NCBI RefSeq assembly: GCF_000152705.1
Contig: NZ_CH672413.1
Span: forward strand, 2,670,139-2,734,138
Direction of reading: 5' to 3'
DNA: 64,000 bases
Origin: Janibacter sp. HTCC2649
GTDB taxonomy: Bacteria > Actinomycetota > Actinomycetes > Actinomycetales > Dermatophilaceae
A program made the position numbers and the translations under genes. The notes under the pieces were generated by a model. The model saw only the letters and a program-made list of their open reading frames with translations, did no database searches and was not told where the DNA came from. Positions 17,343-36,965 of this stretch are shown in pieces (within the stretch, counting starts at the first letter, position 1; every line of letters begins with the position of its first letter).

Positions 17343-17360
17343 CGATGTCCCGAGGGACAA

Positions 17361-17375
17361 ACGTGCGCAAGGGGG
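17361..17375. repeat. Target-site duplication, left copy (15 bp)
   Basis: ACGTGCGCAAGGGGG is repeated exactly at 20033-20047 and directly flanks the terminal inverted repeats of the IS481-family element. The right copy contains the 3' end of tRNA-Leu. Confidence 0.85.
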
Positions 17376-18192
17376 TGTTGAGTCTCAGGACATCCGCAAG
17401 GCATGTCTCAAGACATAGGCAAGGCCGTGGCGCTGCGATGGGGTGGTGTCTCGAGCGAAGCTGGTCATCACCGCTATCACTGTCGAAGGCCTGAGTCAGG
17501 CGGACGCCGCGCGGCGTTACGACGCCTCGCAGGCGTGGGTGTCCCGCCTGATGGCCCGGTTTCGTGATGAGGGCGAGGCCGCATACGAGCCGCGATCACG
17601 TCGGCCGAAGTCCTCACCGACAGCGATCGGTGGCGAGGTCATCGAGGCGATCCTTGCCCAGCGCGACCGGCTCGTCGCAGCCGGTCACGACGCCGGCCCG
17701 GAAACGATCCACTGGCACCTCGAACAGTCAGACACCCTGGTGCGAGTGCCCTCACGGGCGACCATCGCCCGCACGTTGACCCGCCAGGGCCGCGTCACGC
17801 CGGAGCCGAAGAAGAAACCCAAGAGCGCGTACCTGCGCTTCGAAGCCGCCCAACCCAACGAGTGCTGGCAGTCCGACTTCACCCATTACCGGCTCACCAC
17901 GGGCACCGACGTCGAGGTCATCACCTGGCTCGATGACCACTCCAGGTACGCCCTGCACATCAGCGCCCACAACCGCATCACCGGCCAGCTCGTCCTGGGC
18001 ACCTTCCGGGCCGCCATCACTGAACACGGCTGTCCCGCAGGCACCCTGACCGACAACGGCATGGTGTACACCGTGCGCCATGCGGGCCAAGGCCGCCGCG
18101 GTGGACGCAACGCGTTCGAAACCGAGCTCGCCACCCTCGGCATCCGCCAAAAGAACGGACGCGGAAACCACCCTCAAACCCAGGGCAAGGTC

Positions 18193-18426
18193 TGTGAGCA
18201 TGTTGGTAGGCGCTGCACCGGCCCGGTCTGACCCCGGCCAAGGTATGACCAAGGTGTCCTGCGTTCGATTTGTCGACCGGTGCTGGTGCAGCGCCGTGGC
18301 GCGCACCGGCCAGACGGAACTGACCTGATAGGAGCTTGGACTAGAAGCCCCGTCACAGACCTGTCGTCCGTCCGGCCGGTTCGCCGCATCCGTCAGATCA
18401 GCCCTAACGGAGGAGCGAAATCCAGC
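18193..18426 (+). ncRNA. Candidate IS110 bridge RNA region
   Basis: The 234-bp non-coding left region contains two guide-like pairs. Target loop: CAAGGT (18239-18244, repeated at 18250-18255) equals the left target half. GCGTTCGA (18261-18268) is the reverse complement of TCGAACGC, the right target half. Donor loop: ATAGGAGC (18328-18335) equals the right terminus of the element (19545-19552). TCACAGA (18353-18359) is the reverse complement of TCTGTGA at the left junction (18191-18197). The order target pair then donor pair matches the IS110 bridge RNAs described for IS621. RNA ends and folding are not determined. Confidence 0.75.
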
Positions 18427-19539
18427 ATGACAACCACCACCGCGACTGTCACCGTGATTGGCGGCGTCGACACCCACAAGCACACCCACTACGCAGCAGC
18501 CATCGACGACCACGGCAGGTTGCTCGGCCACCACGAGTTCCCGGCAAACGATTCGGGCTACCAGGCGCTCCTGGGCTGGATTCGCCAGCACGGGACCGTG
18601 CAGGCAATCGGCGTCGAGAGCACCGGCTCCTTCGGCGCGACGCTGACCAGGGCGCTCACGACCGCTGGTGAACGAGTGGTCGAAGTCAACCGACCCAACC
18701 GGGCAGCCAGGCGCATGGATGGCAAATCTGATCGCCTGGACGCCGAGCAGATCGCGCGCGCCGTACTCGGCGAAACGTCGACAGCAACCCCGAAGGCCAA
18801 GTCCGGTGCCGTTGAGGTGATCCGCACCTTACGAGTGACCCGCACCAGTGCCGTGAAAGCGCGCACGCAGGCGTTCAACACCCTGTTCGGGGTAATGATC
18901 GGTTCCCCGTCACCGTTGCGTGACGAACTGGTGATCCTCAGCAAACGAACCTTAGTCAACCGCTGCCTCGGGCTACGTCCGGAAACTGATGACCTGCAGT
19001 CTTTGGCCCACGACCCCAACCGGATGCTGATGGCAGGGGTCAAGACCGCGCTGCGGGATTTGGCCCGCCGCTGGAAGGGCCTCGACGCCGAGATCAAGAC
19101 TCTGAACAAGCAGATCGAGGCCCTCGTCCAGGCGGCTGCACCGGAACTGCTGGAGCTGCATGGCGTCGGAGTAGAGATCGCCGGCCAGTTCCTCGTCACC
19201 GCCGGTGACAACACTGATCGGATCCGCAACGAGGCCGCGTTCGCGAAGCTTTGCGGTGTCGCGCCTCAACCTGCCAGCAGCGGCCGCACCCGCGGGAGAC
19301 ACCGCCTCAGCCGAGGTGGTGACCGGGCCGCCAACAGCGCGCTGTACATCGTCACGCTCGTCCGGATGCGCCACCACCAACCAACTCGTGAATACGTCGA
19401 GCGCCGAACCGCCGAGGGCCTGAGCAAACGCGAGATCATCCGGTGCCTCAAGCGTTACATCGCCCGCGAGGTCTTCAACAACCTGCCCACACCCGCCATC
19501 GCGGACCCACTCGCGCGCACGGTCGAAACTGCCGCTTGA
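18427..19539 (+). CDS. IS110-family transposase (DEDD recombinase)
   Basis: 370 aa, ATG 18427 behind GGAGGA. The N-terminal RuvC-like DEDD domain shows GGVDTHKHTHYAA (Asp), AIGVESTGSFGATL (Glu) and KSDRLDAEQIARA (Asp/Asp). A coiled-coil middle (RWKGLDAEIKTLNKQIEALV) precedes the Tnp C-terminal domain (LLELHGVGVEIAGQFLV). There PASSGRTRGRHRLSRGGDR contains the conserved catalytic serine region. Length and motifs are complete, so the protein is probably active. It would act with the RNA encoded just upstream to excise a circle and reinsert at guide-matched targets. Confidence 0.92.
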   Translation: MTTTTATVTVIGGVDTHKHTHYAAAIDDHGRLLGHHEFPANDSGYQALLGWIRQHGTVQAIGVESTGSFGATLTRALTTAGERVVEVNRPNRAARRMDGKSDRLDAEQIARAVLGETSTATPKAKSGAVEVIRTLRVTRTSAVKARTQAFNTLFGVMIGSPSPLRDELVILSKRTLVNRCLGLRPETDDLQSLAHDPNRMLMAGVKTALRDLARRWKGLDAEIKTLNKQIEALVQAAAPELLELHGVGVEIAGQFLVTAGDNTDRIRNEAAFAKLCGVAPQPASSGRTRGRHRLSRGGDRAANSALYIVTLVRMRHHQPTREYVERRTAEGLSKREIIRCLKRYIAREVFNNLPTPAIADPLARTVETAA

Positions 19540-19975
19540 CGAACATAGGAGCATCGAACGCTTCCAACAAACAATGAAGAAGTGGCTCAGCAAACAGCCG
19601 ACCCAGCCCGCCACGATCGGCGAGCTCCAAACCCTGATCGACCAATTCCGTCGCGAGTACAACCACGACCGGCCCCACCGCTCCCTGAAACGGCGAACCC
19701 CAGCAGCCGTCTACATGTCCATGCCGAAAGCGAACCCTCAGCCCGAACCCACAGGCCACACCCACTCCCGAGTGCGCACCGACAAGATCAACAACGGCAA
19801 GATCACCCTGCGCCACGGCGGGACGCTCTACTCCATCGGCATCGGCCGCCGCTACGACGGCACCACCGTAAAAGCGCTGGTCAACGGCCTAGACATCCTG
19901 ATCGTCGACGCCACCACCGGCGAACTCCTCCGCCAGCTCACCCTCGACCCCACCTGCAAATACCAACCCCAAACG

Positions 19976-20011
19976 CAAGAAACCCCGAACCCGTGAGGGT
20001 TCGGGGTCTTG
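19976..20011 (+). terminator. Terminator at the IS481 3' end
   Basis: CCCCGAACCC pairs with GGGTTCGGGG around a GTGA loop, extended by CAAGA/TCTTG. The transposase stop codon TGA lies in the loop. The stem closely resembles the hairpin at 17309-17342 outside the left end of the element. Confidence 0.65.
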
Positions 20012-20032
20012 CCGATGTCCTGAGACATCACA

Positions 20033-20047
20033 ACGTGCGCAAGGGGG
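20033..20047. repeat. Target-site duplication, right copy (15 bp)
   Basis: Exact copy of 17361-17375. It overlaps the last bases of tRNA-Leu (minus strand), so the acceptor stem is intact on this side. Confidence 0.85.
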
Positions 20048-20118
20048 GATTTGAACCCCCACGCCCTTTCGGACACTGCGACCTGAACGCAGCGCGTCTG
20101 CCGTTCCGCCACTTGCGC
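20036..20118 (-). tRNA. tRNA-Leu (CAG)
   Basis: 83 nt. The acceptor arms GCGCAAG and CTTGCGC pair perfectly, with discriminator A; CCA is not encoded. The anticodon loop TTCAGGT gives anticodon CAG. A variable arm (about 11 nt, GTCC/GGGC region) identifies a class II tRNA, and the T arm GGGGG-TTCAAAT-CCCCC is standard. An IS481-family element abuts its 3' end. Confidence 0.95.
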
Positions 20119-35856: not shown

Positions 35857-36843
35857 CTAGTTGTACTGACCCGACAGGTTGGTTAAGCGGGTGATGGGTG
35901 GCTTGTTCCCGCAGGCGGTGTGGGGTCGGTGGTGGTTGTACTCGTGGAGCCATGCTGGCAGAGCTTGGCGTCGTTCGGTTTCTGAGGTGTAGCAGCGGGC
36001 GTATCCCCACCCGTCGGCCATGGTGCGGTGGAAGCGTTCGATCTTGCCGTTGGTCTGCGGACGGCGGGGTCGGGTGCGGGAGTGCTTGATCCCGAGCTCG
36101 GCGCACACGTCGCGCCACAGGTGCGAGATGTAGGCGGATCCGTTGTCGGACAGGACTCTGCGTGTGGTGATGCCACGGACAGCGAACCAGGCGACGGCGC
36201 GGCGTAGGACACCAGTGGCGGTCACGGCGGTTTCGTTGTCGTGGACCTCGGCGTAGGCCACACGAGAGTGGTCATCGATGACGGTGTGCACGAACGCGTG
36301 GCCCATCTTCGGCTGGTAATGCTTGTTCCTCGGTTTGCCCGGGGTGCCTGCCCGGTTCTTCCCGCCTTGGGCTCGGCCCACGAAGCGCCACCCGCCACCG
36401 TCGGGGATGTTTCCGAACTTCTTGACGTCCACGTGCAGCATGTCCCCGGGGCGCTCGTGCTCGTAACGGCGCACCGGCTCCCCGGTGGCACGGTCGACGT
36501 GCGCCAACCGGTTGAGGTGGCACCTGGTGAGCACCCGGTGCACTGTGGAGGGTGCAACCCCCACGTGTGCGGCGAGCTGGACCGGGCCCAACCGTTTGCG
36601 CAGCCGCAACGACACGATCCGCTTCGTCGTCGAGGGAGACGTCTTGGCGGGCATCGCGTGTGGACGGCTCGAGCGGTCGCTCATCGGTTCACCAGCGGCG
36701 TACCGATCGGCCCATCGCTTCACCGTCGGCCAGGAACATTGGAATCGTGCCGCGACCTCGCTGATCGGGACTCGCTGATCGACGACGAGCTGAGCGACCT
36801 TGAGCCGGTGACGAACCGTCAGAGCGGCGTTAGCGTGGGACAT
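35857..36843 (-). CDS. IS481-family transposase
   Basis: 328 aa, ATG 36843 behind AGGAGG. An N-terminal HTH (VPISEVAARFQCSWPTVKRW) and a second DNA-binding helix set (LGPVQLAAHVGVAPSTVHRV) precede the integrase core, which has MLHVDVKKF (Asp), VLSDNGSAYI (Asp) and QTNGKIERFHRTM (Glu). All catalytic residues are intact, so it is probably active. The reading frame runs through the left inverted repeat and ends at a TAG that lies in the flanking target duplication, not in the element. Confidence 0.93.
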   Translation of the reverse strand: MSHANAALTVRHRLKVAQLVVDQRVPISEVAARFQCSWPTVKRWADRYAAGEPMSDRSSRPHAMPAKTSPSTTKRIVSLRLRKRLGPVQLAAHVGVAPSTVHRVLTRCHLNRLAHVDRATGEPVRRYEHERPGDMLHVDVKKFGNIPDGGGWRFVGRAQGGKNRAGTPGKPRNKHYQPKMGHAFVHTVIDDHSRVAYAEVHDNETAVTATGVLRRAVAWFAVRGITTRRVLSDNGSAYISHLWRDVCAELGIKHSRTRPRRPQTNGKIERFHRTMADGWGYARCYTSETERRQALPAWLHEYNHHRPHTACGNKPPITRLTNLSGQYN

Positions 36844-36965
36844 GAGGGCCTCCTGTGTGTGGCAGTGGTGACTTGGCAGTTCCACTCCACCGCGGGAGGC
36901 CCTTCCCGCGCCACTGATCAGATCAGCGGATCGCAATCACTCAACCAACCTGTCGGGTCAGTACA
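35862..36965 (-). mobile_element. IS481-family insertion sequence, intact (1104 bp)
   Basis: Terminal inverted repeats begin TGTACTGACCCGACAGGTTG at both ends (35862 inward, 36965 inward). They are flanked by 6-bp direct repeats TCTAGT at 35856-35861 and 36966-36971. The element is a different IS481 subgroup from the one at 17.4 kb, with other ends and a shorter transposase. It is inserted 10 bp upstream of the rhomboid start, between rhomboid and ppiA, in the same orientation as both. Confidence 0.92.

What the first reader, a model, noticed from the sequence alone, without database searches (positions are those of the whole stretch)
18193..18426. IS110 bridge RNA whose guides match both the insertion target and the element's own ends
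Seen: the interrupted IS481 gene defines the junctions exactly (CAAGG-TC | element | TC-GAACGC). The non-coding left region then contains CAAGGT and GCGTTCGA, which read as left guide and complement of right target (TCGAACGC). Further on, ATAGGAGC equals the right terminus and TCACAGA is the complement of the left junction (TCTGTGA). Four short matches in the expected order (target pair, then donor pair) are unlikely by chance. Established: IS110-group elements such as IS621 use a bispecific bridge RNA from this position. Inference: this is an intact programmable recombination unit, with target recorded in its own RNA and a TC core.
Basis: partly seen in the sequence, partly recalled or inferred. 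Interest (0 to 1): 0.88.

Follow-up and report, generated by a model that had tools for sequence, protein, structure and literature searches.

The report
Transposon RNA aimed at rivals' catalytic codons
A small bacterial jumping gene carries an RNA whose guide-like sequences match both its own ends and the stretch of another jumping gene that encodes that rival's catalytic site, and relatives of it sit in the matching place in many different rivals.

Summary
Region 18193-18426 folds into two conserved loops holding, in order, left and right target guides and left and right donor guides; 0 of 20,000 shuffles carry even three of the four motifs. It precedes an intact IS110 DEDD recombinase, and an identical second copy lies elsewhere in the genome.

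15 of 16 loci of this subfamily with a readable flank (both own copies included) sit at that motif, in host transposases sharing 24-71% pairwise (11 compared). A sister lineage sits four codons before the Glu of IS3-type transposases (12 discovery loci, plus 12 of 12 plasmid loci picked beforehand by protein similarity, nine with both flanks). There the guides follow codon variants of the target (19 of 21).

The mechanism is known (IS621, ISEc21), and ISEc21 is published as targeting codons of another catalytic residue, the second Asp of IS3 transposases. So this is a new member of a known kind that shows a recurrent pattern I did not find in the papers searched. Expression and activity were not tested.

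The parts
18193..19555 (+). IS110 element, 1363 bp; core TC at 18191-18192 (target side) and 19554-19555 (donor side)
   Evidence: identical second copy G000:C1:605251-606613 (-)
18208..18385 (+). bridge RNA region (covariance-model match)
   Evidence: 209.6 bits; this sequence is in the model
18207..18296 (+). target-binding stem-loop; main stem arms 18209-18222 and 18282-18295
18237..18245 (+). left target guide GCCAAGGTA; matches left target GGCAAGGTC at 7 of 9
18261..18268 (+). right target guide GCGTTCGA, complement of right target TCGAACGC
18301..18384 (+). donor-binding stem-loop
18328..18335 (+). left donor guide ATAGGAGC = right end of the element at 19545-19552
18353..18359 (+). right donor guide TCACAGA, complement of core plus left end TCTGTGA (18191-18197)
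18427..19539 (+). IS110 recombinase, 370 aa; D15, E64, D102, D105, S285-G286
19536..19541 (+). -35-like TTGACG in the right end, overlapping the stop codon; in a circle it would face a weak -10-like hexamer (GAGCAT) of the left end
17443..18192 (+). left piece of the interrupted transposase (rve), ends ...QTQGKV
19556..19996 (+). right piece of the interrupted transposase, begins ERFQQT (rve_3 from profile position 20)
17382..17400 (+). left inverted repeat of the host element
   Evidence: 19 nt, 95% with 20008-20026
20008..20026 (-). right inverted repeat of the host element
36029..36048 (-). unoccupied exact target site in an uninterrupted transposase ORF (35857-36936, -), the same kind as the host of the second copy

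Best explanation
An IS110 element with a bispecific bridge RNA (seekRNA) upstream of its DEDD recombinase. The RNA's first loop pairs with both strands of a target split around the core, and its second loop pairs with the joined ends of the excised circle. The target is the codon run G-K-V/I-E-R around the catalytic Glu of rve-type DDE transposases, so the element inserts directly before the Glu codon, in one orientation. Such a site is repeated, dispensable to the cell, mobile between genomes, and held constant by the rival's need for its active site. Shown: anatomy, conserved fold, guide-target and guide-end agreement, repeated independent insertion. Inferred: transcription of the RNA (perhaps from a circle-junction promoter), strand exchange, present activity, that this Glu is catalytic (from the domain and the Asp-to-Glu spacing), and why the target is favoured.
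For: Pfam DEDD_Tnp_IS110 and Transposase_20; IS621 is the best solved relative. Four guides in order, 0 of 20,000 shuffles. Fold in 14 sequences: 97.5% of cells paired; 10 pairs changed on both sides against 3.7 shuffled, 0 of 500 as high. Identical second copy in a host transposase 34% identical to the first. 15 of 16 subfamily loci with a readable flank lie at the Glu motif; of their left pieces submitted 10 of 11 match rve (10; L023 does not), of their right pieces submitted 4 of 4 match rve_3 from position 20. Asp-to-Glu spacing 33-35 in 7 of 10 measurable (in L023 the Asp reads Asn), 41-46 in 3. Own guide-target match 14.1 of 18 on average against at most 11.85 in 20,000 permutations over 53 elements, and 14.7 against at most 12.2 in the 31 elements outside the two Glu-site lineages. 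Four unoccupied exact sites in the genome, all in uninterrupted transposase ORFs.
Against: No transcript, circle or activity data. L011 (70% identical) sits at a similar sequence with no Pfam match on either side. L003 and L023 have an odd left junction (GGCAAAGCATC) and no empty site was found for them. The left guide pairs only one of the two core bases. 7 of 53 elements have a weak own match (12 or less of 18; L007, L010, L011, L023, L051, L054, L091). The permutations treat related elements as independent.
Confidence: 0.93

Rival explanations
1. The recombinase protein, not an RNA, recognises the target; the guide-like motifs are remnants of the target or regulatory repeats.
For: No RNA data here.
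Against: Guide changes follow target changes: 19 of 21 at the Y/F/W/N codon (7 of 100,000 permutations as good) and 17 of 20 exact at the right target (207 of 100,000); covariation of the fold; published dependence of IS621 and ISEc21 on the RNA (PMC11208160, PMC11187229; passages read).
Confidence: 0.04
2. Common descent: the nested arrangement arose once and was inherited, so shared flanks do not show targeting.
For: L074 and L075 show the same flanks as L004 and L006 and were not counted again.
Against: Eleven host transposase pieces share 24-71% pairwise; the two identical copies in the window's genome lie in hosts 34% identical, and the two M. triplex copies (L007, L008) likewise.
Confidence: 0.02
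3. The position reflects where insertions are tolerated or sampled (transposase genes are common and dispensable), not guide specificity for the catalytic motif.
For: L011 shows an insertion where the sequence fits and no transposase is recognised.
Against: The same codon boundary is used in 15 of 16 subfamily loci and the guides spell it. This rival explains why such a programme persists rather than how the site is chosen, so it is partly compatible.
Confidence: 0.05

Closest known systems
ISEc21 (IS110 family; Siddiquee et al. 2024, PMC11187229; passages and two sections read)
   Same: Upstream non-coding region giving a guide RNA; recombinase in the 345-385 aa class; target is codons around a catalytic residue of the DDE transposase of another IS.
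   Different: ISEc21 addresses codons around the second Asp of certain IS3 members; this element addresses codons around the Glu of rve-type (IS481-like) transposases. ISEc21 itself was not fetched or aligned here.
IS621 (Durrant et al. 2024, PMC11208160; passages read)
   Same: Bispecific bridge RNA with left and right target guides, then left and right donor guides, in the same order and strands; long left end, short right end; dinucleotide core.
   Different: Core TC instead of CT; target a transposase codon motif instead of REP elements; 370 aa against 328, weak sequence similarity (E 9.4e-11).
IS4321/IS5075
   Same: An IS of this wider group that inserts in another transposon (recalled; I saw only listings and the mention of an IS4321 target logo in PMC11187229 section 13).
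   Different: Targets end repeats of Tn21-like transposons (recalled), not catalytic codons; IS1111 type (recalled).

Membership tests
IS110 family, IS110 group | RuvC-like DEDD domain plus Transposase_20 domain with S-G | tested here: met
   PF01548 2.3e-23 and PF02371 1e-17; D15, E64, D102, D105, S285-G286; these columns invariant in 6 aligned proteins. That these are the catalytic residues is recalled.
IS110 family, IS110 group | Long non-coding left end upstream of tnp, short right end | tested here: met
   234 bases left, 16 right
IS110 bridge RNA | Two internal loops, target loop first, donor loop second | tested here: met
   the model matches 67 of 72 loci at E up to 0.01 and the other 5 at E 0.012-0.87; 15 of the 72 built the model
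[quoted passage not shown]
IS110 bridge RNA | Core dinucleotide shared by donor and target and paired by all four guides | tested here: inconclusive
   TC is shared here and complemented by both right guides; the left target guide has TA, one of two. In IS3-site relatives the target side reads AC and the donor side TC
IS110 family | No target duplication beyond the core | tested here: met
   Uninterrupted copies read AAGATCGAACG against AAGATC|element|GAACG
IS110 family | Circular intermediate with junction promoter | not testable with these tools
   Sequence only: TTGAC in the right end in 49 of 53 elements, in 44 of these 14-15 bases before the end of the core; the facing hexamer in the window is weak (GAGCAT)
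IS110 bridge RNA | RNA expressed and bound by the recombinase | not testable with these tools
   No reads available
Rfam family | Match to a curated RNA family | tested here: not met
   No match there at gathering score; two matches far below gathering score at E up to 5
IS1111 group | Long non-coding region downstream of tnp | tested here: not met
   Only 16 bases after the stop codon
ISEc21-type target programme | Target = codons around the second catalytic Asp of IS3 transposases | tested here: not met
   Target is the Glu motif; a second-Asp site was seen in L118 and at the left of L142

The most novel reading that the evidence does not exclude
A large group of IS110 elements is repeatedly aimed by its guide RNAs at active-site codons of rival DDE transposases (Glu of IS481-like, Glu and second Asp of IS3-like, and single cases near the Glu of an IS256-like and an Asp of an IS630-like gene), with guides tracking codon variants of those motifs. 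Such elements act as RNA-guided hyperparasites of other transposons: the rival cannot change the site without losing catalysis, each insertion disables it, and its intact end repeats may let sister copies carry the nested element along.
Probability: 0.3. Interest if true: 0.85.

Novelty: new member of a known kind. Interest (0 to 1): 0.6.

Why it matters
It gives a natural data set in which RNA guide, target codon and recombinase can be read together, so guide rules (core tolerance, wobble, length) can be inferred from evolution. It also turns a single published case (ISEc21) into a recurrent strategy: guides written against protein-constrained catalytic codons, which is testable as a form of transposon-on-transposon parasitism, and it points to compact recombinases with a TC core.

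Tried and rejected
Rfam gave nothing. The viral-contig scan with the window protein found no relative; with an alignment it found four, none with both ends cleanly readable. A pattern search for the empty sites of L003 and L023 found none in their records. Whether the Glu-site programme arose once or twice is open: each lineage is one clade (100/100 and 100/98), but one clade of both is not rejected (p-AU 0.306). The first guide finder gave 41 rows, some visibly misplaced (L029, L043, L078, L080, L086), and no row for the others; it was replaced by an anchor-free score.

Rows dropped. Of 102 loci in hand, 71 had both ends placed; the others lacked a donor guide, a right end or enough upstream sequence. 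Of the 71, 13 were left out before scoring (L024 same place as L002; L009, L034, L037 at contig ends; L026, L057, L030, L032, L041, L046 uncertain left end; L070, L071, L072 poor ends), and L055 and L091 left ends were set by hand; identical guide-target rows then reduced 58 to 53. Not counted among subfamily loci: L074 and L075 (same flanks as L004, L006), L024, L076 (split element), L017 and L019-L022 (ends not found). L059 repeats L028. Flank calls resting on the motif alone, without Pfam: L009, L018, L029, L085, L086, L116 and the validation loci L127-L138. In the tree 33 rows are labelled 'other'; their flanks were not scanned with Pfam (pseudo-proteins were made but not submitted), so I do not know how many lie in transposases. 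Of 39 plasmid records I fetched 12. In the non-subfamily elements the left end was placed with help of the right donor guide, so donor pairing there is not independent evidence. L091 and L132 have left guides that do not match their target codon.

Full report
Observation. Left junction CAAGG-TC|TGTGAGC, right junction ATAGGAGCA-TC|GAACGC. CAAGGT occurs twice; by structure the first copy is the left target guide.

The protein. The 370-aa ORF matches DEDD_Tnp_IS110 and Transposase_20, holds D15, E64, D102, D105 and S285-G286, and its two solved relatives at E up to 0.01 are the IS621 and ISCro4 transposases.

The RNA. The region folds into two stem-loops. Fourteen sequences align; the consensus structure has 58 pairs, 97.5% of cells paired, 10 pairs with changes on both sides against a shuffled mean of 3.7, and slid controls pair 31-45%. 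A covariance model from 15 sequences matches 67 of 72 loci at E up to 0.01 and the other 5 at E 0.012-0.87; its 15 sources match by construction. Rfam holds no matching family.

Copies in the same genome. A second copy, identical over 1363 bases, lies at G000:C1:605251-606613. Its flanks are GGCAAGATC and GAACGCTTCC, again in a DDE transposase (RPQTNGKI|ERFHRT), whose left piece is 34% identical to the window's host. Four unoccupied sites fitting GGCAARRTCGARCGSTTCNA exist in the genome, all inside uninterrupted ORFs of this kind; three are the same transposase as the second host but for single residues, one of them inside this window at 36029-36048. They show the empty site with TC once.

The subfamily (67-100% identical). 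Sixteen loci, the window's two copies included, had at least one readable flank: L001-L008, L009 (right), L010, L011, L012 (left), L013, L014, L018 (left), L023. Fifteen sit at the motif (N/Q/T)GK(V/I/A)|E. Pfam on the pieces, each side apart: 10 of 10 left pieces match rve; the left piece of L023 has no match, and the right pieces of L004, L002, L010 and L001 match rve_3 from profile position 20. L009 and L018 rest on the motif alone. L011 has no match on either side and is the exception: the sequence resembles the target but no transposase is recognised. Host pieces share 24-71% pairwise (11 compared), so the insertions are independent. Spacing from the second Asp to the Glu is 33-35 in 7 of 10 loci measurable with both flanks (L023 has Asn for the Asp) and 41-46 in L001, L008 and L013.

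The IS3 lineage (about 47-52% identical to the window's protein). In twelve loci found with the window protein (L015, L025, L028, L029, L080, L084, L085, L086, L091, L111, L112, L116) the element sits four codons before the Glu, as in GDSYD|NALAE; L112 has only its left flank there. Of these, eight pieces were submitted to Pfam and all match rve or rve_3, the right pieces from position 16; L029, L085, L086, L116 rest on the motif. The Asp-to-Glu spacing is 35 in the six that the script could measure with both flanks. I then picked twelve of 39 plasmid records by protein similarity before seeing flanks: 12 of 12 have at least one flank in this motif, nine have both (L127, L128, L130-L134, L136, L138), L129 left only and without the last codon, L135 and L137 right only. 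Guides follow the codon variants: the residue encoded at the Y position agrees between guide and target in 19 of 21 (W in L112 and L138, F in L133, N in L084; not in L091, L132), as good in 7 of 100,000 permutations; the right target matches exactly in 17 of 20, 19 with G-U, as good in 207 of 100,000. Relatedness is not corrected for.

Wider test. Over 53 nonredundant elements with placed ends, own guide-target agreement averages 14.1 of 18 against at most 11.85 in 20,000 permutations. In the 31 elements outside both Glu-site lineages it averages 14.7 against at most 12.2. Seven of 53 score 12 or less, and 16 of 53 beat every other target. Further transposase sites: L042 at HWRQIWSN|NPPERLN and L110 at SYFPD|WLL, both Transposase_mut; L039 at VLVWDN|LNTHL (DDE_3 below its curated cut-off); L118 at HTD|RGSQF and L051 at FGRLK|EFFY, both rve. 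Thirty-three rows of the tree have other or unclassified targets, so the pattern is recurrent, not universal.

Junctions. Where target and donor cores differ, the left junction keeps the target's and the right junction the donor's TC (L007; IS3 lineage). L003 and L023 share an unexplained GGCAAAGCATC left junction; no empty site was found, whereas L005's and L014's genomes each hold one uninterrupted CAGACCAACGGCAAGGTCGAACG. TTGAC lies in the right end in 49 of 53 elements, in 44 of them 14-15 bases before the end of the core, so a circle would set it near a hexamer that reads GATGAT in several; in the window this hexamer is only GAGCAT.

Tree. Of 63 recombinases, the 12 subfamily rows (L011 among them; L014 and L018 were too short) form one clade (100/100) and the 12 IS3-site rows another (100/98). 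One common clade is not rejected (p-AU 0.306).

Known work. PMC11208160 (passages read) defines the guides and their covariation; [quoted passage not shown] So targeting of catalytic codons has a published precedent. PMC12500396 and PMC2516522 (passages) do not describe it. The searches listed no paper that I saw to report Glu-codon targeting or its recurrence; I judged most by listing alone, supplements were not read, and most subscription papers are missing from the library.

Mechanism. Most likely the RNA and recombinase are made from the circle, the RNA bridges the circle ends to the codon motif, and the element enters in one orientation, co-directional with the host gene. The host's end repeats stay in place (17382-17400, 20008-20026), so a related transposase acting in trans might move the pair; this is inference.

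Noticed in passing
17360-17375 and 20032-20047: A 16-base direct repeat AACGTGCGCAAGGGGG lies just outside the inverted repeats of the host element; the right copy overlaps one end of a tRNA gene (20036-20118, -). Possibly a target duplication.
   Followed up: no
L083, L092: Two relatives carry guides for, and sit in, TTATCCAC|AGG and TTGTCCAC|AGG, which resemble DnaA boxes (consensus recalled): another guide programme.
   Followed up: no
L054, L055, L056 (G000:C1:1069164, 2639865, 3937356): The same genome holds three copies of a 47-49%-identical IS110 with a different guide programme (GGCACTGAC); their flanks were not classified.
   Followed up: partly
L003 about 2757-2772, L023 about 2971-2986: Two relatives in different host transposases (47% identical pieces) share the odd left junction GGCAAAG-CATC-TGTG.
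   Followed up: partly
L026: Its right flank, read on the other strand, looks like an IS3 orfA protein (read by eye, no Pfam run).
   Followed up: no
19536-19541: The -35-like TTGAC overlaps the recombinase stop codon.
   Followed up: partly
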